From a virus, in the IMG/VR virus record IMGVR_UViG_3300021962_000030, positions 90,287 through 154,286 of that record: DNA of 64,000 nt; one strand, written 5' to 3'. Both the position numbers and the translations under genes were made by a program. Below, in pieces: positions 15,702 to 30,390 of the stretch; within the stretch, counting starts at the first letter, position 1; each line of letters opens with the position of its first letter. Below the pieces are notes generated by a model. It had not been told where the DNA came from. It made no database searches and saw only the letters and a list, made by a program, of their open reading frames with translations.

Positions 15702-15747
15702 GTATCTTCATCATAGGGTGCTGAAGACCGTTGGAGGGTTTTTCAGC
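15702..15747 (-). promoter_or_regulatory. Intergenic cassette 1 (GC hairpin plus TATGATGAAGATAC)
   Basis: Coding-strand order: GCTGAAAAACCCTCC, GC-rich arm, then CTATGATGAAGATACGGGAGG. TATGAT is a -10-like box and GGGAGG a ribosome-site-like purine run. On the plus strand the hairpin is followed by TTTTT. First of about eleven related copies between 15.7 and 29 kb. Confidence 0.65.
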
Positions 15748-15756
15748 GTATCTGCT

Positions 15757-16008
15757 TCAGACTTCTTCATCCAGCAGATTGGGGACTTCTTTAATCTCAA
15801 CCCCGAAATCTTCCAACACTTCATCACCATAAACATCACGAATCTCATTGATAAGTTCCGACTCGGAGTAGTTGTTAAGATTCTCCACAAGAGTATCAAA
15901 CACAAACTGTTCCATCGATTTCGTGTCCATGCTGTCCATAATCTGTTCAGCATACTTCTCAACCAGTTCGGAGAAGTTGTCAGTCCAGGTGTAAGCGTTG
16001 TTGTTCAT
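15757..16008 (-). CDS. Hypothetical acidic protein, 83 aa
   Basis: Starts MNNNAYTWTDNFSELVEKYA at 16008. Strongly acidic and mostly helical (EQFVFDTLVENLNNYSESEL), ending LLDEEV. No membrane or signal segment. Overlapping frames give basic low-complexity peptides, so this frame was chosen. Part of a run of similar small acidic genes (15.7-16.6 kb). Confidence 0.7.
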   Translation of the reverse strand: MNNNAYTWTDNFSELVEKYAEQIMDSMDTKSMEQFVFDTLVENLNNYSESELINEIRDVYGDEVLEDFGVEIKEVPNLLDEEV

Positions 16009-16012
16009 GGTT

Positions 16013-16228
16013 TCAGTTCAGAATGATACGATAGTCGATTTCCAGGATGCACCAACCGGTTGCACAACTAATCTCTTCGATTAGATCCTCTTCATCATCT
16101 GCCTCCCAGATTTGACCAACATACTCTTGATTGAGTTTTTCTTCAGTACAGATCTGGTCACTCAAAGACCAATCATCTTCACAATCAAGAGAGCAATCAA
16201 ACTCAATTTTGGTGATTTGGAATTGCAT
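16013..16228 (-). CDS. Hypothetical acidic protein, 71 aa
   Basis: MQFQITKIEFDCSLDCEDDW at 16228; four bases upstream of the next gene. Very acidic (EADDEEDLIEEIS) with five Cys residues and a beta-like N- and C-terminus (ILEIDYRIILN). Function unknown; composition resembles small phage proteins that bind host enzymes, but nothing specific is recognised. Confidence 0.7.
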   Translation of the reverse strand: MQFQITKIEFDCSLDCEDDWSLSDQICTEEKLNQEYVGQIWEADDEEDLIEEISCATGWCILEIDYRIILN

Positions 16229-16231
16229 GAT

Positions 16232-16411
16232 TCAAACCAGTTCGGATTGCATTTCGACCTCTAAGGTCTTGAACTTGAAGTAATCATAACCGTCAACTTC
16301 TACCACCTCTTGCATGTACTTTTCAGCAGCAGAGAGACAGTCAAACAAACGAAGGGAAGAGAAATCTTCACCTTCATAATCGAATCCACCGATCACAGAG
16401 TAGACTTTCAT
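16232..16411 (-). CDS. Hypothetical acidic protein, 59 aa
   Basis: ATG at 16411 overlaps the TGA of the upstream gene (TGATG), which decides the start; a GTG one codon earlier is less likely. MKVYSVIGGFDYEGEDFSSL suggests a small beta-alpha domain (SAAEKYMQEV helix). Function unknown. Confidence 0.7.
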   Translation of the reverse strand: MKVYSVIGGFDYEGEDFSSLRLFDCLSAAEKYMQEVVEVDGYDYFKFKTLEVEMQSELV

Positions 16412-16581
16412 CACAGATCAATCACGACGGAGTAGTATGCAACAGAGGAAGGAACTCCGCTTAAAGCAAGCGAACCGTTCCGGGAATCGCAATAGTCTTG
16501 CGCTTCATCATAGGACTCAAAAGGTCCAACGTACTCTGGGGATTCCAGAGACAGAGAATCAAATCGAACGGTGTGGGTCAT
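16411..16581 (-). CDS. Small hypothetical protein, 56 aa
   Basis: ATG at 16581 (MTHTVRFDSLSLESPEYVGP), TGA at 16411 overlapping the next start. The body contains FESYDEAQDYCDSRNG, the pattern of a short phage protein with one helix between strands. It follows cassette 2 directly (16597-16642) and heads a short operon with the next three genes. Confidence 0.65.
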   Translation of the reverse strand: MTHTVRFDSLSLESPEYVGPFESYDEAQDYCDSRNGSLALSGVPSSVAYYSVVIDL

Positions 16582-16596
16582 GGGTGGTTTCCTTTG

Positions 16597-16642
16597 GTAT
16601 CTTCATCATAGGGTGCTGGAACCCATTGAAGGGTTTTTCAGC
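16597..16642 (-). promoter_or_regulatory. Intergenic cassette 2
   Basis: Coding strand: GCTGAAAAACCCTTC, hairpin arms, CTATGATGAAGATACCAAAGGAA. Preceded by the 10-base palindrome GCACATGTGC. Same architecture as cassette 1. Confidence 0.65.
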
Positions 16643-16651
16643 ACATGTGCA

Positions 16652-16801
16652 TCAGAGTTCATCCCTCATTTCAGAAAGTTTATCGTAGATCAGAGATACA
16701 TCTGCACCCACGATTTCACTTACCTCAGACCAATCATCATGAAACTCAATGAGGGCAAGCAGAGCATCAAGTTCATCAAACGTGAGAGTTACTTTTTCCA
16801 T
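16652..16801 (-). CDS. Small hypothetical protein, 49 aa
   Basis: ATG at 16801, two bases after the TGA of the upstream gene. MEKVTLTFDELDALLALIEF then EVSEIVGADVSLIYDKLSEM: an amphipathic, acidic helical protein typical of small phage regulators. Its stop lies next to cassette 2. Confidence 0.65.
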   Translation of the reverse strand: MEKVTLTFDELDALLALIEFHDDWSEVSEIVGADVSLIYDKLSEMRDEL

Positions 16802-16803
16802 GA

Positions 16804-16974
16804 TCAGAAACCGTTGAGAAAGTTAGCAAGTGCTTCATCATACTCCTCTTTGGAGTTAAACACCTTTCCACCAACTGTGCGGGGATAGGTAGACTCTTTA
16901 GCAGGAGTTTGCGTCTCAGCGACACTGTAACCCTTCTCCAGAAGGGTCTGAACGTAGGGGTTGGAATGGGTCAT
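16804..16974 (-). CDS. Small hypothetical protein, 56 aa
   Basis: ATG at 16974 (MTHSNPYVQTLLEKGYSVAE), in the same 'ACCCATG' context as the 56-aa gene at 16581. C-terminal half has VFNSKEEYDEALANFLNGF, an amphipathic helix. First gene after cassette 3. Confidence 0.65.
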   Translation of the reverse strand: MTHSNPYVQTLLEKGYSVAETQTPAKESTYPRTVGGKVFNSKEEYDEALANFLNGF

Positions 16975-16987
16975 GGGTCTTTCTTTG

Positions 16988-17033
16988 GTATCTTCATCAT
17001 AACCCCTCCAGGGCGGTTGGAGGGGTTTTCAGC
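16988..17033 (-). promoter_or_regulatory. Intergenic cassette 3
   Basis: On the plus strand CCCCTCC/GGAGGGG forms a perfect 7-bp stem followed by TTTT (terminator-like for plus-strand transcripts). On the minus strand the stem is followed by TTATGATGAAGATACC. Confidence 0.7.
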
Positions 17034-17042
17034 ACTTGTGCC

Positions 17043-17366
17043 TCAGTTGAGACGCATTCCGCTGAAGAAGGGAATTGCGGATCCGTCATACTGAACGAAC
17101 CACTCACCTTTCTTTTGGAACACATACTCACCAGGCATTCCGTGTGCCTGAAGAATAGCGTTCAGACGGGATTTGGTGGTGTTGGTCCTCCAACCACCAT
17201 CAAACAATTCGACGAACGTTTCACCAATCCGAGCGATCAGATTGTCGTACAGATACACATCAGAAACATGAGAATATGCGATCACTTCAGTGTTATCTTT
17301 CTTCCAATCCTTGTGCTGCAGGATTGCATCGTTCATTTGGGATTCGATCTTACGCATGGTGCGCAT
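17043..17366 (-). CDS. Hypothetical protein, 107 aa
   Basis: Start placed at the ATG at 17366 (MRTMRKIESQMNDAILQHKD); 17357 is an equally good ATG. The frame stays open up to 17420, but that part would be encoded by cassette 4 itself, so it was rejected. The body alternates strands and helices (DVYLYDNLIARIGETFVELF, EWFVQYDGSAIPFFSGMRL). No known domain. Confidence 0.65.
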   Translation of the reverse strand: MRTMRKIESQMNDAILQHKDWKKDNTEVIAYSHVSDVYLYDNLIARIGETFVELFDGGWRTNTTKSRLNAILQAHGMPGEYVFQKKGEWFVQYDGSAIPFFSGMRLN

Positions 17367-17407
17367 GGTGGGAAAAGCGATGGGATGATGGGAGGTCTTC
17401 CCCCCTG

Positions 17408-17453
17408 GTAACTTCATCATACCCCCTCAGGGGTCGTTGGCGGGTTTTTCAGC
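17408..17453 (-). promoter_or_regulatory. Intergenic cassette 4
   Basis: GCTGAAAAACCCGCC, GC arm and TATGATGAAGTTACC; one base differs from the usual GATACC end. The hairpin is less perfect than in cassette 3. Confidence 0.6.
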
Positions 17454-17479
17454 AGAAGTGATGCAGATCTTCACAATAT

Positions 17480-17507
17480 AAAAAATCCGGGGTTACCAGC
17501 CCCGGAT
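17480..17507 (-). terminator. Rho-independent terminator
   Basis: Minus strand ATCCGGGG-CTGGTAA-CCCCGGAT, a perfect 8-bp stem, followed by TTTTT. It ends the transcript carrying the 86-aa gene (17625-17885). Between 17512 and 17624 there is no gene, only a further 8-bp dyad (17558-17580). Confidence 0.9.
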
Positions 17508-17624
17508 CATTAACCCAACACCTATCCACTATTGATATCATTATCTCCGTTCAACTTCGATTCGGTTCCCATCCGAATCGGGGTGACTTTTCTTATAGCA
17601 GCGGCAAACCCTTTCCGCTCTTAC

Positions 17625-17885
17625 TTAGAAGTCGAAGACCTCAGAATTCAGTTCAATTGTATTCACCTTCTTGCTGTTATACTTAACGCCGTCCGGAGTT
17701 TCTTTTACTCCACACTCATAGAGTGCTTCCACGACATCTTCATAGTTGCCGAGTTCACCCGCAAGAGCATAGAGACCTTCATCATTCTGCAACCAGAGTG
17801 CAACATTCCAGGTTTCATAGTTGGTCCAACCATTATAACCTTTGTCGAAAACATTGGTCTTGTGAATGTCAAAGATGGTGTTCAT
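17625..17885 (-). CDS. Phage protein with NYETWNV motif, 86 aa
   Basis: Start MNTIFDIHKTNVFDKGYNGW at 17885; the in-frame region upstream (to 17954) is Pro-rich and lies in a structured leader, so it was rejected. The GWTNYETWNVALWLQND motif is shared by a small protein family in many phages and plasmids. The rest is helical and acidic. Function unknown. It has an unusually long leader (about 100 bases) after cassette 5. Confidence 0.75.
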   Translation of the reverse strand: MNTIFDIHKTNVFDKGYNGWTNYETWNVALWLQNDEGLYALAGELGNYEDVVEALYECGVKETPDGVKYNSKKVNTIELNSEVFDF

Positions 17886-17912
17886 GATCTTAGAAACAAT
17901 TGGGTTGGGGTT

Positions 17913-17954
17913 GGGGGGTGCCCTTAGTTCCCCCCGTTGTGGCAGTTGTGCCAC
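17913..17954 (-). promoter_or_regulatory. Structured 5' leader with two stem-loops
   Basis: Coding-strand order: GTGGCA-CAAC-TGCCAC (17954-17939), then GGGGGG (17935-17930) pairing with CCCCCC (17918-17913) and a C/A-rich run before the ATG at 17885. Other cassettes place the start codon within 15-25 bases of the purine run; here about 100 bases intervene. Confidence 0.45.
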
Positions 17955-17986
17955 TTCCTAGAGCAGAGTGGAGGTCTTTCCCTCCC

Positions 17987-18032
17987 GTATCTTCATCATA
18001 CCCCCCGGAAGGGGTTCGGAAGGTTTTTCAGC
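17987..18032 (-). promoter_or_regulatory. Intergenic cassette 5
   Basis: GCTGAAAAACCTTCC, GC arm, TATGATGAAGATACGGGAGGG. Preceded by TGATGCACATCTGC, as in cassettes 2 and 6. Confidence 0.65.
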
Positions 18033-18041
18033 AGATGTGCA

Positions 18042-18269
18042 TCAGAAGTGAGATTCGGACCAATCAAGCATTTCGCTATACTTAGCGATGCCATCATAGC
18101 AACGCTTGCTCATCTCATGATCACCGTCTGCAACATAACCTTTCAGGAATTCGAAGCAATACTTGATACGCAGTTCAGGTGCGATTGCTTCCAGTTGTTG
18201 ACGCTTACGCTCTTGATAGGAGTTGTAAGCAAACATTTCACGATCTTCGAATGACATTTGGTGAAACAT
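18042..18269 (-). CDS. Hypothetical protein, 75 aa
   Basis: Start MFHQMSFEDREMFAYNSYQE at 18269, nine to ten bases after AAAGGA. The in-frame extension to 18302 (MMKIPK...) is translated promoter sequence from cassette 6, so it was rejected. Charged, helical protein (ERKRQQLEAIAPELR), no domain recognised. Confidence 0.7.
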   Translation of the reverse strand: MFHQMSFEDREMFAYNSYQERKRQQLEAIAPELRIKYCFEFLKGYVADGDHEMSKRCYDGIAKYSEMLDWSESHF

Positions 18270-18289
18270 GGTGTGGGTCCTTTCCTTTG

Positions 18290-18335
18290 GTATCTTCATC
18301 ATACCCCCCAGAGAGGGTCTGGAGGGTTTTTCAGC
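18290..18335 (-). promoter_or_regulatory. Intergenic cassette 6
   Basis: CCCCCCAGA/TCTGGAGGG stem with one mismatch, TTTTT on the plus side, TATGATGAAGATACCAAAGG on the coding side. Best-conserved form of the cassette. Confidence 0.7.
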
Positions 18336-18347
18336 AGAAGTGATGCA

Positions 18348-18746
18348 TTACCACTTCTCCATCCACCCATGGCGGGTGCATTCTAAAGTAACGCCAGCAC
18401 GGTTGATGTTACGATCAAAATCAACATTTGCGGCACGAAGTGCATCATGATCAATCTTGGTTGCATCACAGTAGAATTTGATCGCACCATATGCAGTTTG
18501 AATCCTAGCAGCACCGTTGAGTTCATTATACTCAAGAACGGTATACTTGGTGAAATCAGTGCCGCCGCGGCCAACGGCTTTACCATCTACAACTGCATCA
18601 TCTTTGATGTCGATATAATGCTCCTGAAATCCGTATGCATCATAATAGCGACCATTCGGAAGTGCAACACCGGGAGCACATGCAGTGGTGAGAATAGCAA
18701 GACCAGCAACCAGAATGCCGGTGAGTTTGGTGAGAGTGGCAGTCAT
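18348..18746 (-). CDS. Predicted exported or lipoprotein-like protein, 132 aa
   Basis: MTATLTKLTGILVAGLAILT is followed by TAC and then AP: a type II-like signal with Cys at residue 23 (lipobox TTAC, a weak match). The mature part has charged, beta-like segments (GRYYDAYGFQEHYIDIKD; FTKYTVLEYNELNGAARIQ) and one more Cys pair. Expected location is the host periplasm or inner membrane. Function unknown. Confidence 0.65.
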   Translation of the reverse strand: MTATLTKLTGILVAGLAILTTACAPGVALPNGRYYDAYGFQEHYIDIKDDAVVDGKAVGRGGTDFTKYTVLEYNELNGAARIQTAYGAIKFYCDATKIDHDALRAANVDFDRNINRAGVTLECTRHGWMEKW

Positions 18747-18767
18747 GGTGTGGGTCCTCCCCTTTCT

Positions 18768-18811
18768 GTTATCAGTATAGGGTCCCGCAGGACCCCGACT
18801 GAGTTTTCAGC
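18768..18811 (-). promoter_or_regulatory. Intergenic cassette 7 (variant with TATACT)
   Basis: GCTGAAAACTC, then GGGGTCCTGCGGGACCC (perfect GGGTCC/GGACCC-type stem) and CTATACTGATAAC. TATACT replaces TATGAT as the -10-like box. The TGA of the upstream gene lies inside the GCTGAAAA part. Confidence 0.65.
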
Positions 18812-19091
18812 ACATGTGCAGCACAGGTGCTGGTTGAACAGAAAAGGTGCCCAATCGGTCACAAGAGATAGAAACAGCGTGAGAAGGTGCTCCACACTCA
18901 TCTACAACTTCCCACCAATCTTCACCTTCTTGAATCACAACATAACCGAAACATCCAGCGATGGAAAGAGACTTAAGGCCCCACTTTTCTGCATGAGTCT
19001 GATAATTCCACCAAGTCCTTTCGTTATAGAATTTGGAGGAATCATCAGAGCGAGGACCAAACGTGATGCAGGTGAATTTGAATTTGTCCAT
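18807..19091 (-). CDS. Hypothetical protein, 94 aa
   Basis: MDKFKFTCITFGPRSDDSSK at 19091. Aromatic-rich (ERTWWNYQTHAEKWG) with a central beta region (GYVVIQEGEDWWEVVDECG) reminiscent of small immunity or DUF-type proteins; not assigned. The last codons overlap cassette 7, so the C-terminus (PAPVLHMC) doubles as regulatory DNA. Confidence 0.65.
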   Translation of the reverse strand: MDKFKFTCITFGPRSDDSSKFYNERTWWNYQTHAEKWGLKSLSIAGCFGYVVIQEGEDWWEVVDECGAPSHAVSISCDRLGTFSVQPAPVLHMC

Positions 19092-19093
19092 GA

Positions 19094-19249
19094 TCAGGAG
19101 ATTGCACGAAGGTGTTTACGGGTGTCGAAACCTTTAGCATGTTCTTCCTTGCGCAACTTAGCAGCAAGTTCTGCAAAGGTATAGGGTTGATTTGCAGCAA
19201 TCATGATTAATTGCTGAGATTGCAAATCACACGCCAATTGGTAAGACAT
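19094..19249 (-). CDS. Small hypothetical protein, 51 aa
   Basis: ATG at 19249 (MSYQLACDLQSQQLIMIAAN) follows the TGA of the upstream gene by seven bases; a start at 19324 would lie wholly in that gene. FAELAAKLRKEEHAKGFDTR is a basic helix. Function unknown. Confidence 0.6.
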   Translation of the reverse strand: MSYQLACDLQSQQLIMIAANQPYTFAELAAKLRKEEHAKGFDTRKHLRAIS

Positions 19250-19256
19250 GGTGAAT

Positions 19257-19376
19257 TCAGTTGGCAAGAGCGTGACAATGAGCAAGGGCACCATAAGTCC
19301 TGAGAGCATACTGATATGCTTCAACTTTGGTGTAGAAGCACGCCACGGGACTTCCTTTGTAGTAGAGAGTGAACAT
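19257..19376 (-). CDS. Small hypothetical protein, 39 aa
   Basis: ATG at 19376 after GGAGGAGACCCACC, a strong ribosome site 8-12 bases upstream. MFTLYYKGSPVACFYTKVEA followed by a His/Cys-containing tail (YGALAHCHALAN). First gene after cassette 8. Confidence 0.65.
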   Translation of the reverse strand: MFTLYYKGSPVACFYTKVEAYQYALRTYGALAHCHALAN

Positions 19377-19394
19377 GGTGGGTCTCCTCCTTTG

Positions 19395-19440
19395 GTATCT
19401 TCATCATACCCCCTCAGGACCCCCCGGAGGGTTTTTCAGC
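19395..19440 (-). promoter_or_regulatory. Intergenic cassette 8
   Basis: GCTGAAAAACCCTCCGGGGG...GGGGGTATGATGAAGATACCAAAGGAGG. Preceded by the palindrome GCATCGATGC at the same relative position as GCACATGTGC in cassette 2. Confidence 0.7.
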
Positions 19441-19449
19441 ATCGATGCG

Positions 19450-19734
19450 TCACATACGTTCACGCATCATCCGGTGAGCATGAGATTCTACAACTTTTAG
19501 TCCATCTTCTGTAGATGATACAAACCACGCTGCACATGTGCTTCCGTTGAGTGCAACTTCATCAGCAATCTTCCACGAATTCCCATAATATTGAATCAGC
19601 ACGTAGTAATCATCAACTGCGCCAGCAATGAGTTGATTGAATGCATGGTAAACAGTATACTCATCTTCATGACGAACATGATGATTAAAAATATTTCCAT
19701 CTTCTAGAAGACGTGCGGTGATGATTTCAAACAT
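19450..19734 (-). CDS. Hypothetical protein, 94 aa
   Basis: MFEIITARLLEDGNIFNHHV at 19734. Beta-rich centre (DDYYVLIQYYGNSWKIADEV) and a C-terminal helix ending HAHRMMRERM. No domain recognised. First gene after cassette 9. Confidence 0.65.
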   Translation of the reverse strand: MFEIITARLLEDGNIFNHHVRHEDEYTVYHAFNQLIAGAVDDYYVLIQYYGNSWKIADEVALNGSTCAAWFVSSTEDGLKVVESHAHRMMRERM

Positions 19735-19756
19735 GGTGGGTCTTTGATCTCAACAA

Positions 19757-19799
19757 TGTCAGCATATGCCCCTCAGGGCCCCCTGCAGGGTATTTCAGC
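19757..19799 (-). promoter_or_regulatory. Intergenic cassette 9 (diverged)
   Basis: GCTGAAATACCCTGCAGGGGGCCCTGAGGGG then CATATGCTGACATTG. Hairpin and TATGCT box retained; GATACC end lost. Confidence 0.5.
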
Positions 19800-19805
19800 A
19801 GATAT

Positions 19806-20138
19806 TTAGCGGGAGAGCATCACCCGTGCAGCACGACCGCTGTTATAAGTCCACAGAACGGCAGATGCGAATCGATTCTTTACATCTTCACCGTTCACTT
19901 CCCACCATAGTTGTACAGCAGCGATCACATCTTTCACGAATGAGTATACTTTATGCAGGAATGCTTTAATCTCAGTCTCATGCTCTTTTACATATTCGAT
20001 CACCACAGTTACAATCACTGCCACGAAGGCAACTAGTGTAACAAATTGATTCCAGAGATTCTTATAATCCACTGCCCGAAGATAATCATAAAGATCATTC
20101 ACAGGGGGAAAAGATTTGGCGAAAGGTTGAGTGTTCAT
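19806..20138 (-). CDS. Predicted single-pass membrane protein, 110 aa
   Basis: MNTQPFAKSFPPVNDLYDYL start at 20138. One strong membrane segment at about residues 30-48 (FVTLVAFVAVIVTVVIEYV), then a charged helical domain (EHETEIKAFLHKVYSFVKDV) and a basic C-terminus. Probably a host inner-membrane protein of unknown role. The 134 bases downstream of the next gene's stop (20139-20272) hold no gene. Confidence 0.7.
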   Translation of the reverse strand: MNTQPFAKSFPPVNDLYDYLRAVDYKNLWNQFVTLVAFVAVIVTVVIEYVKEHETEIKAFLHKVYSFVKDVIAAVQLWWEVNGEDVKNRFASAVLWTYNSGRAARVMLSR

Positions 20139-20272
20139 GATTTCAAAAGAATTAATTGTGTGGTGGCAATCCGTCTGCCTCCACGTTCACACCATAGCAC
20201 TCCCAGGACCACGTGACGTGCTGCAGATACGAATCTTAACCGCAGCATCATGCATCATGTTACACGTGTATA

Positions 20273-20434: not shown

Positions 20435-20458
20435 AAGAACCATCTGAACTCTATGTGT

Positions 20459-20487
20459 ATTATACCGCGCTTAGATTAATAAGGCAA
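20459..20487 (-). promoter_or_regulatory. Sigma70 promoter TTGCCT-17-TATAAT
   Basis: Minus strand -35 TTGCCT (20487-20482), 17-base spacer, consensus -10 TATAAT (20464-20459), 25 bases upstream of the 53-aa gene. One of the best early-type promoters in the window. Confidence 0.85.
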
Positions 20488-20489
20488 GC

Positions 20490-21020
20490 GTTGAATGTAT
20501 ATATGCAGCATGTGTAAATCTAGTGTACTTATGTGAAGTATGTACATGAATCTAGATGTGTATATGCAGCATACATGAATCTAGATGTATATGTGTATGA
20601 TGTGAATCTAGTTGCATATGTGCAGCAGATCTAGTGCAATCTAGTTGTGTATATGATGTGCTGTAATCTAGTTGCAGAAATCTAGTTGCATATGTGCAGC
20701 AGATCTAGTTGTGTTTCAGCGGACCCGTGGCATTTCTGCAGCGTCCCTGGGGCAAATTTTCCGCGTCCCGTGGTTGACAAACTGCGCGTCCGGTGCTAAG
20801 CTGTCCAAGATCACAAGACCTGGGGGCATTTAAATGATCATAAGTGTATTAAAGATCTAGTTACATGATGTATAGATGATTTAATACATGATGATGATTA
20901 ATCTAGTTGTGTATATGATGATTAATCTAGTACATGAATCTAGTTGTGTATATGATGATGAATCTAGTTACATCTAGTTGTATAATACATGATGATTAAT
21001 CTAGTTGTGTATACATTGTT
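20490..21020. repeat. ATCTAG-rich irregular repeat field (non-coding)
   Basis: About twenty copies of ATCTAG, mostly inside longer units of the type AATCTAGTTGTGTATATGATG or ATCTAGTTGCATATGTGCAGC, spread over about 500 bases and interrupted by a GC-richer block (20705-20835). No open frame of note on either strand. Could be an origin-like or protein-binding region or recombination debris. Confidence 0.7.
20774..20802 (+). promoter_or_regulatory. Plus-strand sigma70 promoter TTGACA-17-TAAGCT
   Basis: Consensus -35 TTGACA (20774-20779), 17-base spacer, -10 TAAGCT (20797-20802) inside the GC-richer block of the repeat field. It points toward the GIY-YIG gene 400 bases downstream; no gene lies between, so it may produce a long leader or a non-coding RNA. 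Confidence 0.6.
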
Positions 21021-21208
21021 TAAAGAGATAATAAGATCAATATAAGTATCGTACCCATCCATATACCCATTAAAGCAACAGTTAATTGAAACATAATACT
21101 ATCCATATCTAATGGTTTATACTCCTATTATAGCACACTTAAACCTTTTATTTATTCCTCTAAAACATATATATTTTTACGTTTAACACAAACATCATAT
21201 TATTCATT

Positions 21209-22015
21209 ATGACAAATACGGGCACAATATACCTCATTCTCAATCGTGTCAATGGACATAAGTATGTGGGTCAAACTAGGCAACAATTGAACACCAGATG
21301 GAAGGCACATCTGACTGAAGCACGTTCTTATCCTACTCGTCCTCTCTACTATGCAATTAACAAATATGGTGCAGATAAGTTTACCATTAAGGTATTAGAA
21401 GAATGTTCGGTAGATAAGTTAAATGAAAGAGAAGTGTATTGGATTTCTAAACTCAATACCTTTAAAAGTGGTGTCGATTATAATGCAACTGCAGGTGGTG
21501 ATTTCTTTGAACATACAGAGGCTACTAAACAAAAGATCTCTGAAGGAATGAGAAAGGTAGAGCGTTCGGATGAATGGATACAGAACATGTCTACCTCATT
21601 AAAGGAAAAGGCAAAGAAAGAACCTTGGGGGTTTTTGAATGCAAAGAATAGAGCAGATGGTAAACATACACGTCGTAGAGTTAAAGGTGTATGTGTCACC
21701 ACTGGAAAAGAGAGAATCTTTGAAAGTATGACTGAAGCAGCAAGACAGGTGAATGGAAAGAGTGGTAATATCTGTGCTGCGATCAAGAACAATTGGATGG
21801 CATATGGTTACAGATGGGAAAAGATTGATACACGTCCCAGTAAGTTACAATGCTATGGTGTGAATAAGCATACTGGTGAACAAACAGTCGTCTTTCCCAG
21901 TATTAAAGCTGCATGTCGTTATATGGGTGGAGATCATGATTCTGGTATTCGCAAAGCATTAAAAGCACCAGGAGTGTCCACATGGTATGGATACTACTGG
22001 TTCTTTGTGGCATAG
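21209..22015 (+). CDS. GIY-YIG homing endonuclease (Seg-like), 268 aa
   Basis: N-terminal GIY-YIG nuclease domain: GTIYLIL (residues 5-11) and KYVGQT (18-23) with the catalytic Arg in TRWKAH (about residue 30) and YAINKYGADKF following. The C-terminal half carries DNA-binding repeats of the intron-encoded-nuclease type (VCVTTGKERIFESMTEAAR; VNKHTGEQTVVFPSIKAACRYM). Freestanding mobile endonuclease, one of only five plus-strand genes; its 3' end overlaps the convergent 155-aa gene by 22 bases, which suggests insertion. Confidence 0.9.
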   Translation: MTNTGTIYLILNRVNGHKYVGQTRQQLNTRWKAHLTEARSYPTRPLYYAINKYGADKFTIKVLEECSVDKLNEREVYWISKLNTFKSGVDYNATAGGDFFEHTEATKQKISEGMRKVERSDEWIQNMSTSLKEKAKKEPWGFLNAKNRADGKHTRRRVKGVCVTTGKERIFESMTEAARQVNGKSGNICAAIKNNWMAYGYRWEKIDTRPSKLQCYGVNKHTGEQTVVFPSIKAACRYMGGDHDSGIRKALKAPGVSTWYGYYWFFVA

Positions 22016-22458
22016 AGTAGCACAATACAAACACCAACTGCAATACCAATCAAAGTGAATGGTGCAATGTCATTCACTCCCAAAGGTAATCTTTGATAGG
22101 TCTCAGAATCATCAGATCCATTTCTACACTTAGATGAAGATGCATAATCCCAGATTACTCTTGGTCCTTCGGTGTAGAACATTTTTGGATAATCATAATA
22201 TCCAATCTCTGCCTTGCAGATCTTACCTGAAGAGATTACATATCCACCTGAACAGGAGACTTCAAATCCTTCTTCTGTTTCAATCAGATGAAGATCAGAT
22301 TGCTCAAAATGCTTGGCTTTGATGCCTCTTGACCTTGCATTAAAGTGAGATTGCATTTCCTTACACTCTGCCTTAAATGGAAGATTCGCAGCAGAAACAG
22401 AACCACCTGTCGTAAGTGCAAGGAATGCAATTAAAGATGCAATAGTAGATTTAAGCAT
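21994..22458 (-). CDS. Secreted, membrane-anchored protein, 154 aa
   Basis: Start MLKSTIASLIAFLALTTGGS at 22458, a Sec-type signal peptide (cleavage about after VSA, residue 23); longer in-frame starts would overlap PTOX further and spoil the signal. The exported part has four or more Cys (KAECKEM, VSCSGG, GKICKAE, SSKCRNG), probably disulfide-bonded. C-terminal membrane segment (FTLIGIAVGVCIVLLYAT). Overlaps the end of the PTOX gene by eight bases, so the two are translated together. Function unknown. Confidence 0.75.
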   Translation of the reverse strand: MLKSTIASLIAFLALTTGGSVSAANLPFKAECKEMQSHFNARSRGIKAKHFEQSDLHLIETEEGFEVSCSGGYVISSGKICKAEIGYYDYPKMFYTEGPRVIWDYASSSKCRNGSDDSETYQRLPLGVNDIAPFTLIGIAVGVCIVLLYATKNQ

Positions 22459-23077
22459 GATACTCTTTTTCACAATACTGACATGTAAGAACATGTTGCA
22501 TTTCATCATTTCTCACTTCACGAATCACATCCGCAAGTGTTTCCAGTTTGGGACGACGTTGAAGTTCGCATTGTGGTTGAAACTTGTCAAATAGATACTG
22601 ATTCTCCTCATTCACATAATAGGTGATTGCGGCAGCAGGAACTGGTCCTTTCAGCAGATCTGAGTCAGATTGAAGAAACTTATCATAGGTCCCATAGGCA
22701 TGTTTCTCAATCTCTGCCATCATGTAGTATGCTGCTGGGGCATCTACCACATACAAAATCACAACTGCCCAGTAATACAGTAGAGCAGCATGATAGGCTA
22801 TAAATCGATTGATCCATTGCTTGTTGCCACCCAGTTCTTCAAAGATGCGAAGATGATGTTCTTCATTATAGGATTCTGCATAATGCACACTCAGCCAATC
22901 ATAGCGATCCCACATACCCAGAGATTGATACAGGTGCAGAACACTCATCCATGAGAAATAAGGTACTCGCGCAACTGTTTCCAATACCCAAAATCGTTCG
23001 ATTGGTGCATTCTTGTAAACAATATCCAGTAGAAATACAACTACTGACACCATAAGATTTGCAATTAAACGTGTCAT
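22451..23077 (-). CDS. ptox: Plastoquinol terminal oxidase (PTOX), alternative oxidase family
   Basis: 208 residues. Di-iron carboxylate oxidase motifs in order: LETVA (E33), NEEHHLRIFEELGG (E72, H75), the AEIEKHAYGTY region (E124), and NDEMQH (E192, H195), plus DAPAAYYM and RVPYFSW typical of PTOX/AOX. It oxidises plastoquinol and reduces oxygen to water at the thylakoid surface, relieving over-reduction when photosystem I or carbon fixation is limiting. PTOX is a known cyanophage auxiliary gene. Start ATG at 23077 overlaps the upstream stop (ATGA) with GGAG seven bases before it. Confidence 0.92.
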   Translation of the reverse strand: MTRLIANLMVSVVVFLLDIVYKNAPIERFWVLETVARVPYFSWMSVLHLYQSLGMWDRYDWLSVHYAESYNEEHHLRIFEELGGNKQWINRFIAYHAALLYYWAVVILYVVDAPAAYYMMAEIEKHAYGTYDKFLQSDSDLLKGPVPAAAITYYVNEENQYLFDKFQPQCELQRRPKLETLADVIREVRNDEMQHVLTCQYCEKEYHA

Positions 23078-23475: not shown

Positions 23476-23478
23476 AAT

Positions 23479-24219: not shown

Positions 24220-24225
24220 GTTTAT

Positions 24226-24399: not shown

Positions 24400-24632
24400 G
24401 TCGTAAACTCTCCAAGAACACGGGAAACTTCTTCTTCAACTAGAGCAAACCTTGATGCTCTCACAACTGCTGCCATGATCAAATTGTCATAAGCATTGTC
24501 ATAATAGAATTCTGATCGTTCGGCAAGAAGATCGTGACATTCAACATCACTCTCTGCGATGACGTTAATCATCCCACCATACTCGGAAGATGGAAACGGC
24601 ACCCAATAATCAACCTCGTAAAGAAATTTCAT
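24396..24632 (-). CDS. Hypothetical protein, 78 aa
   Basis: MKFLYEVDYWVPFPSSEYGG at 24632. Alpha/beta pattern (GMINVIAESDVECHDLLAER) with helical C-terminus. Translationally coupled to the coiled-coil gene by ATGA. Unassigned. Confidence 0.7.
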   Translation of the reverse strand: MKFLYEVDYWVPFPSSEYGGMINVIAESDVECHDLLAERSEFYYDNAYDNLIMAAVVRASRFALVEEEVSRVLGEFTT

Positions 24633-24636
24633 TTGC

Positions 24637-24807
24637 TTAAATGTAACCCTCCTGAATAAGAATAGCAGCAGTTCTCTGGTAGGAACCCTGCAATGAATTT
24701 ATCATACCACTTGAGACCAACTCTGTAAAGAGTTCAAGGGTCTCATCAAAGTCAAGCTCACCATTCTCATAATCCATGATCAGATCAACAAGACTTGCAG
24801 TAATCAT
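24637..24807 (-). CDS. Conserved small cyanophage protein, 56 aa
   Basis: ATG at 24807 with GAGGAG eight bases upstream. MITASLVDLIMDYENGELDF, then ELVSSGMINSLQGSYQRTAA and GYI at the end: this matches a short protein widespread in marine phages whose pattern is 'MIT.SL...I..YE.GE....E....F.ELV..G....LQGSY.R'. Function unknown. First gene of the PTOX transcript; a TATACT box lies 27 bases upstream. Confidence 0.8.
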   Translation of the reverse strand: MITASLVDLIMDYENGELDFDETLELFTELVSSGMINSLQGSYQRTAAILIQEGYI

Positions 24808-24833
24808 TGGTGCTCCTCAACTCTCATATTGTT

Positions 24834-24839
24834 AGTATA
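24834..24839 (-). promoter_or_regulatory. -10 box TATACT for the 24.8-22 kb operon
   Basis: TATACT on the minus strand, 27 bases upstream of the 56-aa gene. No convincing -35 at 16-18 bases. The surrounding stretch 24840-24984 is GC-richer than the rest, has no gene, and separates this unit from the terminator at 24985-25022. Confidence 0.5.
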
Positions 24840-24984
24840 TGCGCCATATGCCCCCTGAAGCGACCCGATGTGACAGTTGCGTGAGTGGCACGTGTGAGTG
24901 GGGAAAGGGGTCCTGTGGGCGCTGCTGGGTGCTGCAGAGCGTCAGATCCCTGTCGTGGACTGGACGGAAACCACGATTTTCTTG

Positions 24985-25022
24985 CAAAAAAAGGGAGGAA
25001 GGACACTAGGACCCTCCTCCCC
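24985..25022 (-). terminator. Rho-independent terminator
   Basis: Minus strand GGGAGGA (25021-25015) and TCCTCCC (24999-24993) form a 7-bp stem followed by TTTTTTT. Lies 24 bases after the stop of the secreted 120-aa gene. Confidence 0.85.
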
Positions 25023-25045
25023 ATGAAATTGACGATTTTGGCAGA

Positions 25046-25408
25046 TTAACAGCCACCCAGACCAAGTGCAAATCCTTTGGTACGAATGCCCAGATGTGAG
25101 CATCCATATCCACGATATCCACGATAAGGAGTTCCGTAGTATGGACCAGGAACAGGTGCATAATATGGTGCAGGAGCAACAACCGGAGGTGGAGCAACAT
25201 AACCACAGTTATGATAGACAGGTTCTCTAACTATTCCACCGCGAAACCAATTCCCGTATTGGTCATAATATCCGGGTCTGCTATATGTTCTCCAAGTTGT
25301 ACATGTTTGCACATAAGTGCGAGTTCTACCATCATACCTAACCTCCTGCGCATTAGCAGAGAAAGGCATCGACAACAATAACAAAGGAAGTAGCAAAAGT
25401 GCTTTCAT
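25046..25408 (-). CDS. Secreted Pro/Tyr-rich protein, 120 aa
   Basis: Start MKALLLLPLLLLSMPFSANA at 25408, a clear Sec signal peptide ending ANA; an upstream in-frame start at 25429 would disrupt the signal. The mature protein is rich in Tyr, Gly and Pro (VAPPPVVAPAPYYAPVPGPY; GYRGYGCSHLG) with several Cys. Probably exported to the host envelope. Role unknown; such proteins could alter the cell surface late in infection (inference). Confidence 0.7.
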   Translation of the reverse strand: MKALLLLPLLLLSMPFSANAQEVRYDGRTRTYVQTCTTWRTYSRPGYYDQYGNWFRGGIVREPVYHNCGYVAPPPVVAPAPYYAPVPGPYYGTPYRGYRGYGCSHLGIRTKGFALGLGGC

Positions 25409-25435
25409 AATCGATATGCAAAGGTACAATACTAT

Positions 25436-25840
25436 TTAATTGAATGTGAGAGCGAAGAACCTCTGCTCTTCAAGAGCACCAGGAACTTCAAAATATTTCC
25501 ACCCATCATTGGTAAAGATGTATGCATATTCACATCCCTGATCATTTGCACACTCAAGATATTCATTCACATTATCATGAAGCTCAGGCTCAATATTTGT
25601 CTCGCCCCGGTCGCGGTAATAAAGTACAATATTTTCGTCCAGCGCCATATTATCCCAAGAAGAGTTGCTGTCGATGCAACTAATGTCGCCCCCATCAATC
25701 AACGACTTGATCTTATCTACAGTGTCATACTTCTCAACAAGTCGCTTGCCCAACCATTCCGGATACGCATCCCAATGGTGGTACACAGATACTACATGTC
25801 CAGAGGGCAGTTCCAGACCAATCCGGCCGCGAGTTGCCAT
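25436..25840 (-). CDS. Conserved phage protein (MATRGRIGLELPSG family), 134 aa
   Basis: MATRGRIGLELPSGHVVSVY at 25840 then HHWDAYPEWLGKRLVEKY: this N-terminus recurs in many phage and bacterial hypothetical proteins. It ends in a beta-rich acidic region (CEYAYIFTNDGWKYFEV). Function unknown. First gene after cassette 10, with AAAGGAGGATT a few bases before the start. Confidence 0.78.
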   Translation of the reverse strand: MATRGRIGLELPSGHVVSVYHHWDAYPEWLGKRLVEKYDTVDKIKSLIDGGDISCIDSNSSWDNMALDENIVLYYRDRGETNIEPELHDNVNEYLECANDQGCEYAYIFTNDGWKYFEVPGALEEQRFFALTFN

Positions 25841-25860
25841 TTGAGAATCCTCCTTTGGTT

Positions 25861-25905
25861 CAATACCATCATACCCCCCACGGGGTCTCCGGAGGGGTTT
25901 TCAGC
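25861..25905 (-). promoter_or_regulatory. Intergenic cassette 10
   Basis: GCTGAAAACCCCTCCGGAG...GGGGGGTATGATGGTATTG. Hairpin and TATGAT kept, downstream half diverged (GGTATTG instead of AAGATACC). It lies 5.9 kb from the main cluster. Confidence 0.6.
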
Positions 25906-25920
25906 ATACCTGCAGCATTT

Positions 25921-26907
25921 CTACACACCCATAGCGTCCAGAAGGGGTGAATGTTCTACCTCTGCCACATCAATCTGCAGGTTTTCTATTGACTTCTCAA
26001 ACAACTTCTTGCCTTCTTTGTTAAGATCGAATAAAACGTAATTTCTGCCGGTCAGAAGGGCACTCCTGCCCACCGTCCCAGACCCAGCGCAAGGATCCAG
26101 AACAATAGAATCCTCATCGCTAAACATCCTCAGAATACGATTCAGTAGAGCAACAGGTTTCTGTGTGGCATAATCCAGTTTCTCAACACCCTGTATCTGC
26201 TTAATGTCTGACCACACATCTTTGACTGGAATTCCATCCATCTCATCAAGATACTTCTTGACCCTAGGAATACCAGTATTGGATGAGTATTCAAGGCGAT
26301 TGTCATCATGAAGCATCTGCATTCTCTCCTTTGATACATGCCACTGGAGATCATGTCCATTCCATTTATATCTCAGGTTGGGTCTGGATACAACGTTTGG
26401 TTGACGATTTACCAGGGCAGATGTGTGATACTTCTTCTTGCGATATGGACAAATCTTTGCCTTTCGAACTGTCTCATCATCATACTCTTTATGCTCTGGA
26501 TGATAGATGGACTCGGCACCCTTTTGATAGACTATGATCGTATCATGATTGCGCTGCAGTTGTTTCTTTGACTTGTGATTGCCGCCAGAGACCCATACAA
26601 TCTCATTCTTAAATCTCTTCTCACCAAACACATCATCAAGAACAATACGAATATGATGTGAGATCTTTGGTTCAACATGCACAACAATATTACCACGATC
26701 TGTGAGAATACGATGACACTCCTGTAGAAGTGGGCGCATCAACAAATCGCGGTAATCTGCACTTGATTTGAACCTATCATCAAAATGATAGAAGTCCCTA
26801 CCGGTACAATATGGTGGATCAATGTAAACAAGATCTACAGTATTCGCTTCAACTTTCTGCAGCAAATCTCTACTGTCACCGATGTTGTACTCGTTTAAGA
26901 TCTTCAT
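25921..26907 (-). CDS. DNA methyltransferase, beta class (DPPY), 328 aa
   Basis: Motif IV DPPY at residues 30-33 precedes QKPVALL (249-255) and motif I DPCAGSGT (271-278), the order of beta-class amino-methyltransferases; DPPY suggests N6-adenine or N4-cytosine methylation. The long middle (residues 100-240) is the target recognition region. Start MKILNEYNIGDSRDLLQKVE at 26907, nine bases after GAGG, inside the 3' end of the upstream gene (32-base overlap). With that gene it may form a restriction-modification pair; it could equally be an orphan protecting methyltransferase. Confidence 0.88.
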   Translation of the reverse strand: MKILNEYNIGDSRDLLQKVEANTVDLVYIDPPYCTGRDFYHFDDRFKSSADYRDLLMRPLLQECHRILTDRGNIVVHVEPKISHHIRIVLDDVFGEKRFKNEIVWVSGGNHKSKKQLQRNHDTIIVYQKGAESIYHPEHKEYDDETVRKAKICPYRKKKYHTSALVNRQPNVVSRPNLRYKWNGHDLQWHVSKERMQMLHDDNRLEYSSNTGIPRVKKYLDEMDGIPVKDVWSDIKQIQGVEKLDYATQKPVALLNRILRMFSDEDSIVLDPCAGSGTVGRSALLTGRNYVLFDLNKEGKKLFEKSIENLQIDVAEVEHSPLLDAMGV

Positions 26908-27421
26908 AGATAAGAACCTCTTTCGCACGTCCTGTATACTTCTTACGAACTGCTGCTGGCACAGAACCAACACAGTATCCTGGCATATTCTTGTCTTCTA
27001 ACTCATAACTGGGAATAGCAAGATACTCCCAATCAGAGATGTCCTCATAACCATTTGGTATGATGAACAGTATAACATCAAATGAATTGATTGCATACCT
27101 CACCTGACCATTCTTTGCTCCCTGAGTAGCATTCTTACCCGTGGTCCTTCGGGTCTGTTCCATGTGAAGGGAATTGCCTCCACGATACTTCACTTGAATG
27201 CGAAGATTGTTGGTAGATAGACGATCATACTTCTCCTGCTGACCATCAGCATCATTAGGAGATGGTTTTGTTTGAATTCCACACTCCTCACGCAACCACT
27301 GGGGTGCGATAATCCTTTCCGTTGGAAATGCAAGAAACTTACCAATCTCTCTGGTGTCACCTTCGGTGATGAGTTCCTGAAACCCAAGGGCAACAATTTC
27401 TGAAAGTGATGATACTGACAT
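26876..27421 (-). CDS. Putative PD-(D/E)XK restriction nuclease-like protein, 181 aa
   Basis: ATG at 27421 (MSVSSLSEIVALGFQELITE). Its core reads D66, then RIQVK (74-78) and FDVILFIIP (114-122), the order of the metal-binding Asp, Q/ExK and following strand in many PD-(D/E)XK nucleases. Basic patches (QTRRTTGKNATQGAKNG) flank it. It overlaps the methyltransferase gene, the classical layout of type II systems. The nuclease assignment is inferred from this motif order and context, not from a family match. Confidence 0.5.
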   Translation of the reverse strand: MSVSSLSEIVALGFQELITEGDTREIGKFLAFPTERIIAPQWLREECGIQTKPSPNDADGQQEKYDRLSTNNLRIQVKYRGGNSLHMEQTRRTTGKNATQGAKNGQVRYAINSFDVILFIIPNGYEDISDWEYLAIPSYELEDKNMPGYCVGSVPAAVRKKYTGRAKEVLIYEDLKRVQHR

Positions 27422-27422
27422 T

Positions 27423-27545
27423 TCAACCACCGTAGATCATTGCAAAGGTGAAAAGCACAAATAAAACAACTGTGAAAACCATCATACCAACACCTGCCCA
27501 GATTACCCAGTTGGGCATTGGTTCATAATTGTGATTGTGTGCCAT
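27423..27545 (-). CDS. Small membrane peptide, 40 aa
   Basis: ATG at 27545; its TGA at 27423 overlaps the region just before the nuclease start, so the two are coupled. MAHNHNYEPMPNWVIWAGVG is followed by one strong membrane span (MMVFTVVLFVLFTFAMIY). Short N-out or N-in anchor; function unknown. Confidence 0.65.
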   Translation of the reverse strand: MAHNHNYEPMPNWVIWAGVGMMVFTVVLFVLFTFAMIYGG

Positions 27546-27571
27546 GGTGTCTCATATCATACAATAGTATT

Positions 27572-27592
27572 GTAGGGTCCAGAAGACCCTAC
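27572..27592 (-). terminator. Hairpin at operon boundary
   Basis: GTAGGGTC-TTCTG-GACCCTAC, perfect 8-bp stem. The stop codon of the metallophosphoesterase gene is in the right arm. Followed on the minus strand by AATACTATTGTATGAT, which offers -10-like boxes for the 40-aa gene. Confidence 0.65.
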
Positions 27593-28368
27593 GGCAGGTC
27601 AATCAGCAGATCCGGATCAAATCCGTTGCTGTCACTCTCACCAGTATAACCTGATGGATTGCAAATTACCCTACATCCTTCAATCATGTAATCAAACCTA
27701 GAATGTGTATGACCATGGACCCAATACTTAATCTGGGGATGTGCCAAGATCAGATTATCCAAGTCACTCACATATGCACCATTTGACTCATTACGATACT
27801 TAGATGCAATTGATTGCAAACTTGGTCCATGATGACTGATGACAAATACATTCTCTGTGAGAGATTGTAGTTGCTTCAGAAGATACTTCTTACTCTTCTT
27901 ATGAAGATCAAGAGTATCATCAGGGTTCAACTTTCTATACTTTGAAGTAATCCTGATGCTACGATAATCATTCATGACTGTAGCAGCATCCATCATTTCA
28001 AGAACATTTTCATTCCTGAAGTCGGTCCAAAGTGTGAACCCAATGAAGTTCCAGACACCAATCTTTACTGTATCATTATCAAGCACTTGAAAGTTGCTTG
28101 GAAGATTGCTTAGGATCTTTTTCTTAGCACCCTCAACGTTGTATCCATAGTATTCATGATTGCCAAAAACGTAGAGAATCTTATCATAGTTCTTACTGCA
28201 TTCATACAAGAAATTATCATAAATGGAATGAATATAACCATCCGTCTTGAAGTGCCTTGCACAGAGAATGTCACCAGCAAGAATGAGAACATCACCCTCA
28301 CCAACAGGGAACACCTGACAGGCAGAGTAGTGCTCAAGATGTAGATCAGAGTAAACTTTGACTTTCAT
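27589..28368 (-). CDS. Calcineurin-like metallophosphoesterase, 259 aa
   Basis: All five metallophosphoesterase motifs are present: SDLHLE (D8, H10), GDIL (D33), GNHEYYG (N70, H71), SHHGPS (H179) and HGHTHSRFD (H218-H222). It hydrolyses phosphoester bonds with two metal ions; the substrate cannot be told (nucleotide, cyclic nucleotide or protein). Related enzymes occur in T4-like phages. First gene of its transcript, start MKVKVYSDLH at 28368; a hairpin (28399-28422) lies upstream. Confidence 0.88.
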   Translation of the reverse strand: MKVKVYSDLHLEHYSACQVFPVGEGDVLILAGDILCARHFKTDGYIHSIYDNFLYECSKNYDKILYVFGNHEYYGYNVEGAKKKILSNLPSNFQVLDNDTVKIGVWNFIGFTLWTDFRNENVLEMMDAATVMNDYRSIRITSKYRKLNPDDTLDLHKKSKKYLLKQLQSLTENVFVISHHGPSLQSIASKYRNESNGAYVSDLDNLILAHPQIKYWVHGHTHSRFDYMIEGCRVICNPSGYTGESDSNGFDPDLLIDLP

Positions 28369-28398
28369 GATGCTCCAATATCATAATTACGCAGGAGA

Positions 28399-28422
28399 CC
28401 CTTCCCAGTGGTCCAGGAAGGG
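28399..28422. terminator. Intergenic hairpin
   Basis: CCCTTCC...GGAAGGG, perfect 7-bp stem with a 10-base loop, between the 149-aa and metallophosphoesterase genes. No T tract on the minus side, so terminator function is uncertain. Confidence 0.5.
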
Positions 28423-28443
28423 CACTTTACTATGTTTCAGGTG

Positions 28444-28893
28444 TCAGCGGGAATACAAATACCCACCCGACCAATCAGCGTTCTGTAGAACCCACTCACG
28501 ATCTTTAATCAGACGGAGATCGTAACGAACACCTTTGGCAGGTGCTTTCCAAGATGCAGACTTGTAGACTTCACCAGTCTTCTTGTCCACAAAACAATGC
28601 ACAGAACGGGACGCCCCAGCATCAACAAAGATGATCTTGTGATACTTGCGACCACTCTCAATCACATAATCAATGGGCAGTTTACCACTCTTGAGTTCAT
28701 CAATAGAACGCTGATGATATCCATGGGCATCTTCTGGAGTGCCAACATAACGCTGATGACCACGAATTGCATACTCGCGATAGTTGTCACGCAGAGCATC
28801 AGTAAGCATCCAGCACCACTTAACCACATTCAACTGAATGGTGTTGCGGGCATCCTGCTGCGCAGCGTAGTCGGCAAAGGTGGTGGCAGTCAT
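28444..28893 (-). CDS. Conserved phage hypothetical protein, 149 aa
   Basis: MTATTFADYAAQQDARNTIQ at 28893. The C-terminal half carries 'RKYHKIIFVDAG.SRSVHCFVDKKTGEVYK.ASWKAPAKGVRYDL', a pattern shared by hypothetical proteins of many marine phages (recalled, not checked). The N-terminal half is helical. Function unknown. First gene after cassette 11. Confidence 0.8.
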   Translation of the reverse strand: MTATTFADYAAQQDARNTIQLNVVKWCWMLTDALRDNYREYAIRGHQRYVGTPEDAHGYHQRSIDELKSGKLPIDYVIESGRKYHKIIFVDAGASRSVHCFVDKKTGEVYKSASWKAPAKGVRYDLRLIKDREWVLQNADWSGGYLYSR

Positions 28894-28912
28894 GGCAAGG
28901 TCTCCCTCTCTT

Positions 28913-28956
28913 CAATACCATCATATCCCCCCAGAGGTCTCTGGAGGGATTTTAAT
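28913..28956 (-). promoter_or_regulatory. Intergenic cassette 11 (diverged)
   Basis: AAAATCCCTCCAGAGACC...GGGGGGATATGATGGTATTG; CCAGAG/CTCTGG stem retained. Preceded by CACATGTGCTGC in shuffled order. Confidence 0.5.
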
Positions 28957-28971
28957 CACATGTGCTGCAGA

Positions 28972-30368: not shown

Positions 30369-30390
30369 GAGGTCTCCTTCATCTACTAAT

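What the first reader, a model, noticed from the sequence alone, without database searches (positions are those of the whole stretch)
15702..28956. Family of intergenic cassettes: GC hairpin joined to a TATGAT box
About eleven intergenic sites (15702-15747, 16597-16642, 16988-17033, 17408-17453, 17987-18032, 18290-18335, 18768-18811, 19395-19440, 19757-19799, 25861-25905, 28913-28956) share the coding-strand order: short dyad (GCACATGTGC, GCATCGATGC), TGCTGAAAA, GC hairpin, TATGATGAAGATACC, purine run, start codon. TATGAT looks like a -10, but there is no -35 at 16-18 bases; instead the hairpin fills the spacer. The T tract of the hairpin faces the plus strand, which has no genes there. They may be a portable early promoter/insulator that blocks antisense transcription, with the palindrome and TGCTGAAAA as a binding site for a phage activator.
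Basis: partly seen in the sequence, partly recalled or inferred. Interest (0 to 1): 0.7.

Follow-up and report, generated by a model that had tools for sequence, protein, structure and literature searches.

The report
Repeated cyanophage promoters with hairpin spacers
A virus of marine-type cyanobacteria carries eleven copies of what looks like one on-switch for its small genes (a protein-binding box, a fixed 24-letter gap that usually folds into a hairpin, and an RNA-polymerase start signal), whereas its relatives put a different box in front of the same genes.

Summary
The eleven sites are real. All lie on the minus strand between tandem small genes: a box (TG-NN-GCA...TGCTGAAAA), 24 nt (25 once), TATNNTG, then a start codon. 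A genome-wide pattern search finds nine strict copies on one strand and none on the other strand or in the reversed-pattern controls. Spacer sequence diverges (52% pairwise identity) but its length does not, and most spacers form hairpins kept by matched changes (p about 0.001). Three related viral contigs carry 4-7 copies each.

The best reading is a -35-less promoter with an upstream activator-type box. The key support is comparative. In other Kyanoviridae, orthologous genes carry a different box, TGTGACAGT-N7-CTGTCCAC, then 28-30 nt and TATNNT. The window's own genome uses that box elsewhere. The two designs are interchangeable in front of the same genes, and cassette-linked genes have moved between relatives, as with PeSL cassettes of T4-like phages.

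The antisense-insulator idea is weak. Stem and T-tract adjoin in about 8 of 11 copies, and one relative's copy lacks the spacer hairpin yet keeps box, spacing and -10. Early timing and activator identity are untested. This is a new variant of a known kind.

The parts
15709..15759 (-). Cassette copy 1: box, 24-nt spacer (hairpin weak), TATGATG; long leader with G-rich hairpin
16604..16654 (-). Cassette copy 2: TGATGCACATGTGCTGAAAA, 24-nt spacer, TATGATG; drives ORF 16411-16581
16995..17045 (-). Cassette copy 3: TGAGGCACAAGTGCTGAAAA, 24-nt strong hairpin spacer, TATGATG; drives ORF 16804-16974 (phrog_649)
17415..17465 (-). Cassette copy 4: TGCATCACTTCTGCTGAAAA, 24-nt spacer, TATGATG; drives the phrog_554 gene (start ATG near 17357)
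17994..18044 (-). Cassette copy 5: TGATGCACATCTGCTGAAAA, 24-nt hairpin spacer, TATGATG; drives the phrog_871 gene (ORF 17625-17885) through a leader of about 100 nt
18297..18347 (-). Cassette copy 6: TGCATCACTTCTGCTGAAAA, 24-nt strong hairpin spacer, TATGATG; drives ORF 18042-18269 (phrog_15469)
18773..18823 (-). Cassette copy 7: TGCTGCACATGTGCTGAAAA, 24-nt spacer, TATACTG variant; drives ORF 18348-18746
19402..19452 (-). Cassette copy 8: TGACGCATCGATGCTGAAAA, 24-nt hairpin spacer, TATGATG; drives ORF 19257-19376
19760..19811 (-). Cassette copy 9 (variant): GCTGAAAT, 25-nt spacer, TATGCTG; drives ORF 19450-19734
25867..25917 (-). Cassette copy 10: TGCTGCAGGTATGCTGAAAA, 24-nt strong hairpin spacer, TATGATG; drives ORF 25436-25840 (phrog_1987)
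28919..28969 (-). Cassette copy 11 (variant box GATTAAAA): 24-nt strong hairpin spacer, TATGATG; drives ORF 28444-28893 (phrog_818, DUF7717)
17484..17508 (-). Separate sense-strand intrinsic terminator just upstream of copy 4; shows the cassette hairpin is not the sense terminator there
59424..59482 (-). Second promoter class in the same genome: TATGACAGT-N7-CTGTCCAC-N28-TATACT, with TTGACT -35
41010..41068 (-). Second promoter class: TGTGACAAT-N7-GTGTCCTG-N28-TATACT
30390..30450 (-). Second promoter class: TGTGACAGT-N7-GTGTCATA, 30-nt hairpin spacer (-15.9 kcal/mol), TATACT

Best explanation
Each cassette is a promoter for the small minus-strand gene or genes after it. TATNNT is the -10 read by a sigma-70-type host RNA polymerase, with a G right after it in every copy. 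There is no -35. Instead a sequence-specific activator, probably phage-encoded or phage-recruited, binds the dyad-like box TG-NN-GCA-NNNN-TGCTGAAAA, which would lie at about -56 to -37. It contacts polymerase across a fixed 24-nt gap. That gap is usually a GC hairpin whose sequence drifts while pairing and length are kept. In some copies the hairpin could also act as an antisense terminator or a 3'-end stem for upstream transcripts, but that is secondary. Near-identical copies let genes be gained, lost and reordered by recombination between cassettes, as proposed for PeSLs. Shown here: the anatomy, fixed spacing, coupled hairpin arms, copies in relatives, promoter exchange at orthologous genes, and gene rearrangement between cassette-bearing relatives. 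Inferred: promoter activity, the activator, its identity, the timing, and recombination as the cause of the rearrangement.
For: Spacing is exactly 24 nt in 10 of 11 copies and 24-25 in all listed related copies, although the spacer is only 52% identical between copies; GCTGAAAA is 95% and TATNNTG 94% identical. TATNNTG varies only at the two positions that vary in -10 boxes (TATGAT, TATACT, TATGCT). Orthologous genes in other Kyanoviridae have a different dyad box plus a -10 at the same place: 25436-25840 versus DSL-LC02 (operator, TATAAT; -10 to ATG about 33 nt in both), 18042 versus S-CREM1, the phrog_554 gene versus DSL-LC02, S-CAM9, S-SKS1, S-B43 and S-PM2. That second class, TGTGACAGT-N7-CTGTCCAC-N28..30-TATNNT, is found in over 100 viral stretches; of 102 distinct sites 57 have TANNNT at 27-30 nt and only 12 of those a TTGA/TTGC -35, and it also occurs in the window's own genome. 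Nine strict copies against zero in all controls. Hairpin arms are matched within copies: self-folds -10.3 against -8.5 for swapped arms, permutation p 0.0006; 0.0024 for window copies alone. A related copy (L032) with no spacer hairpin keeps box, 24 nt and TATACTG, so box and -10 are the invariant parts.
Against: No expression data exist for this phage, and no start site is mapped. No DNA-binding protein was identified as the activator. MotA and AsiA profiles gave no match in this record, but the control genomes also gave none, so that search is uninformative. Copies share ancestry, so fixed spacing could partly reflect recent duplication. The box overlaps upstream stop codons (TGA), which inflates the TG conservation.
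Confidence: 0.75

Rival explanations
1. Classical PeSL: a terminator stem-loop for the upstream gene followed by a host-sigma-70 early promoter, with no special activator.
For: Intergenic, many copies in a variable gene region, hairpin next to a -10, genes rearranged relative to cassettes. Other sites in this genome do show a sense terminator followed by TATGATG (39572 in the window; genome 38302).
Against: The cassette hairpin has no T-tract on the sense strand in any of the eleven copies, no -35 is present, and copy 17408 is preceded by a separate strong sense terminator. Fixed spacing to a conserved box that is not a -35 is not explained.
Confidence: 0.12
2. Antisense insulator: the main role is an intrinsic terminator facing the plus strand that stops antisense transcripts, with promoter function added.
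For: The A-tract on the sense strand gives TTTT or TTTTT on the plus strand after a GC stem in about 8 of 11 copies; the terminator scan flags two of them.
Against: In copies 15702, 17408 and 18768 and in L032_12182 and L032_12896 the stem does not abut the T-tract; one L032 copy has no spacer hairpin but keeps AAAA. No plus-strand genes exist at the main cluster.
Confidence: 0.06
3. RNA-level element: the repeat acts in read-through mRNA as a processing site and 5' stabilising hairpin before each ribosome-binding site, not as a promoter.
For: The hairpin is maintained by matched changes, sits between tandem genes, and precedes a Shine-Dalgarno sequence.
Against: TATNNTG variants follow -10 rules; orthologs carry unrelated boxes with a -10 at the same place; a fixed 24-nt distance is expected for DNA-bound proteins, not for RNA processing.
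Confidence: 0.07

Closest known systems
PeSL (promoter-early stem-loop) cassettes of T4-like phages (Arbiol 2010; Comeau 2014, known here through PMC4503421 and general knowledge)
   Same: Intergenic, many copies in a variable early region, stem-loop joined to a -10; cassette-linked genes are rearranged between relatives
   Different: No -35; hairpin lies inside the promoter between box and -10 and lacks a sense T-tract; has a conserved upstream box at fixed distance. PMC4503421 reported that such density is not seen in cyanophage S-PM2
T4 middle promoters (MotA box plus -10)
   Same: No -35 needed, upstream activator box plus -10; the box even contains TGCT
   Different: From general knowledge the MotA box is centred near -30, here the box lies at about -56 to -37; cyanophages are reported to lack MotA and AsiA (PMC5780444, PMC2984593)
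TGTGACAGT-N7-CTGTCCAC-N28..30-TATNNT class of Kyanoviridae (described here)
   Same: Dyad box, fixed gap, -10, mostly no -35, frequent hairpins in the gap, same genes downstream
   Different: Different box sequence and spacing; widespread, whereas the TGCTGAAAA class is seen only in this genome and three related contigs
PeSL-like repeats of haloarchaeal virus HGTV-1 (PMC3950731)
   Same: Conserved motif with promoter-like box and inverted repeat before most genes of one genome arm
   Different: Archaeal TATA box, unrelated virus

Membership tests
PeSL | Multiple near-identical intergenic copies in a hypervariable early region | tested here: met
   Eleven copies, 15.7-29 kb, between small ORFs
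PeSL | Strong sigma-70 promoter with -35 and -10 | tested here: not met
   -10 present, no -35 at 16-18 nt in any copy
PeSL | Stem-loop able to terminate transcription of the upstream gene | tested here: not met
   No sense-strand T-tract after the stem; T-tract only on the antisense side
PeSL | Gene shuffling between cassettes in related phages | tested here: inconclusive
   Orthologs of 16804 and 19257 are adjacent in L032, separate in the window; 18042 and 17625 have no match in L032. Consistent, but recombination itself is not shown
T4 MotA-dependent middle promoter | MotA box centred near -30 upstream of a -10 | tested here: not met
   Conserved GCTGAAAA ends 24 nt upstream of TATNNT
T4 MotA-dependent middle promoter | Phage encodes MotA and AsiA | tested here: inconclusive
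   No match, but controls silent too; literature says cyanophages lack them
Sigma-70-type activator-dependent promoter (functional class) | -10 without -35 plus box at fixed upstream distance | tested here: met
Sigma-70-type activator-dependent promoter (functional class) | Transcription start 6-9 nt after -10, dependent on an activator | not testable with these tools
   Needs dRNA-seq and in vitro transcription

The most novel reading that the evidence does not exclude
Kyanoviridae control early or middle genes through lineage-specific DNA-binding activators, each with its own dyad box at a fixed distance from a -35-less -10. This lineage has evolved or acquired a second activator (the TGCTGAAAA box) and moved orthologous genes from the common TGTGACAGT/CTGTCCAC regulon into the new one, with hairpin spacers that may help melt or position the DNA.
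Probability: 0.4. Interest if true: 0.72.

Novelty: new variant of a known kind. Interest (0 to 1): 0.52.

Why it matters
How T4-like cyanophages switch on early and middle genes without MotA or AsiA is described as unclear (PMC2984593). This finding gives two concrete, testable promoter classes with defined boxes and spacings, one widespread in Kyanoviridae and one private to a small lineage, and shows that orthologous genes carry either class. That makes it possible to look for the activators and to test whether promoter exchange accompanies gene shuffling.

Tried and rejected
Scanning viral contigs with the bare 15-mer was useless (120 or more stretches, mostly chance). Of the 10 stretches from the looser box-plus-TATGATGAA pattern, only L032, L132 and L133 were real; the rest looked like chance matches without the GC hairpin. 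A third, looser scan again gave only these three. A blastn of one cassette against annotated phages gave only chance matches. A leader peptide starting at ATGATG was considered and dropped: the frame is not kept and the TATACTG and TATGCTG variants lack the ATG. A plus-strand promoter inside the repeat (TATCTT) was considered; it is not conserved in all copies. A T4-late promoter was dismissed because the sites lack TATAAATA. Profile searches of early proteins found no candidate transcription regulator. The primary PeSL papers and Doron 2016 were not held, so PeSL details come from citing papers and general knowledge.
Full report
Setting. The window is positions 90,287-154,286 of a 154,286-bp viral record. 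It is a T4-like cyanophage: a gp6-like baseplate protein lies at 10688-12598, and its best annotated DNA matches are S-PRM1 and S-CREM1, both Kyanoviridae. The finding lies in a run of small minus-strand genes between the baseplate genes and a plus-strand GIY-YIG endonuclease gene, with two further copies beyond it.

Observation. All eleven sites exist. Aligned on TATGAT without gaps, the conserved columns are TG at -44/-43, CA at -39/-38, TGCTGAAAA at -33 to -25 and TATNNTG at 0 to 6 (positions relative to the first T of TATGAT). Mean pairwise identity is 95% for GCTGAAAA, 94% for TATNNTG, 66% for the left part of the box, 52% for the 24-nt spacer and about 30% outside. The spacer length is 24 in ten copies and 25 in one. 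A whole-genome search for CANNNNNGCTGAAAAN{23,25}TATNNTG gives nine hits on one strand and none on the other strand or for the reversed pattern.

Hairpin. Spacers fold at -10.3 kcal/mol on average against -4.9 for shuffled spacers. Swapping arms between copies weakens them (-8.5; permutation p 0.0006 for 16 copies, 0.0024 for the 11 window copies). Pairing is therefore maintained by matched changes. It is not universal: copy 15702 is weak, 17408 and 18768 pair only on the -10 side, and one copy in relative L032 has no fold in the spacer at all. The invariant parts are the box, the distance and the -10. The A-tract stays even where no stem abuts it, which argues that it belongs to the box rather than to a terminator. 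On the sense strand no T-tract follows the stem; on the plus strand about 8 of 11 copies could form a terminator, and the simple scan flags two. Copy 17408 is preceded by its own strong sense terminator at 17508-17484.

Relatives with the same cassette. Only three viral contigs (L032, L132, L133) were found to carry it: six, six and four pattern matches, plus a more divergent one in L032 upstream of the ortholog of 18348-18746. Their gene content matches the window region (up to 97% protein identity in the flank), but order differs. In L032 the ortholog of 16804-16974 sits, with its cassette, directly before the ortholog of 19257-19376; in the window these two genes are apart and each has its own cassette. 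Genes 18042 and 17625 have no match in L032. This fits recombination between cassettes but does not prove it.

A second promoter class gives the key to function. Upstream of early genes in S-SZBM1, DSL-LC02, S-CREM1 and S-PRM1 I found TGTGACAGT-N7-CTGTCCAC followed 28-30 nt later by TATNNT, including perfect TATAAT. Of 102 distinct sites, 57 have TANNNT at 27-30 nt, only 12 of those have a TTGA/TTGC -35 at 16-18 nt, and about a fifth of these spacers fold clearly better than shuffles. The window's own genome uses this class too, for example at 59430, 41016 and 30396. At orthologous genes the two classes replace each other: 25436-25840 versus DSL-LC02 4787 (same distance from -10 to ATG), 18042 versus S-CREM1 8250, and the phrog_554 gene at 17043 versus DSL-LC02, S-CAM9, S-SKS1, S-B43 and S-PM2. 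This is the strongest evidence that TATGAT is a -10 and that TGCTGAAAA stands where a regulator binds.

Mechanism. I conclude that the cassette is a -35-less promoter with an activator-type box at about -56 to -37, a 24-nt gap that usually forms a hairpin, and a -10 with a following G. Shown: anatomy, spacing, coupled arms, promoter exchange, rearranged gene order. Inferred: activity, activator, timing, cassette recombination. The antisense insulator is at most a secondary effect. Rivals are given with refuting tests.

Known kinds. PeSL cassettes of T4-like phages are the closest match in layout and in the proposed shuffling role (cited in PMC4503421; similar repeats in a haloarchaeal virus, PMC3950731), but two defining features tested here are not met: the -35 and the sense terminator. 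MotA-type promoters are the closest in logic, but the box position differs and cyanophages are reported to lack MotA and AsiA (PMC5780444, PMC2984593). PMC2984593 states that the mechanism of early and middle transcription in cyanomyoviruses is unclear. [quoted passage not shown]

Verdict. Observation confirmed; interpretation partly supported; a new variant of a known kind, interest 0.52.

Noticed in passing
window 59430, 41016, 30396 (-10 positions, minus strand); L143, L144, L135, L134 and over 100 viral contigs: Widespread Kyanoviridae promoter class TGTGACAGT-N7-CTGTCCAC-N28..30-TATNNT, mostly without a -35; possibly an unrecognised family-wide regulator site.
   Followed up: partly
window 20440-21030: About 600 bp of non-coding AT-rich repeats of AATCTAGTTG(TGTATATGATG) type beside a homing endonuclease gene; could be an origin or regulatory array.
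   Followed up: no
window 21209-22015 (+) and 14376-14792 (-): GIY-YIG/NUMOD and HNH homing endonuclease genes flank the main cassette cluster.
   Followed up: no
leaders after copies 15702, 17408, 17987; L032 10508 and 12511; S-CREM1 and S-SZBM1 orthologs: Transcripts would begin with a G-rich 5' hairpin (GGGAGG...CCTCC) about 8 nt after the -10; similar G-rich leaders occur before the same genes in other genera, despite other promoter boxes.
   Followed up: partly
window 22451-23077, 32427-32885, 43338-44294, 44592-45143: Auxiliary metabolic genes: alternative oxidase, CpeS-like, PRPP synthetase and a LOG/lysine-decarboxylase-like protein.
   Followed up: no
L135 10988-11053, L144 2060-2109: Sigma-70 promoters whose TTGACA -35 lies inside a terminator-like hairpin: compact PeSL-like elements in cyanophages.
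   Followed up: no
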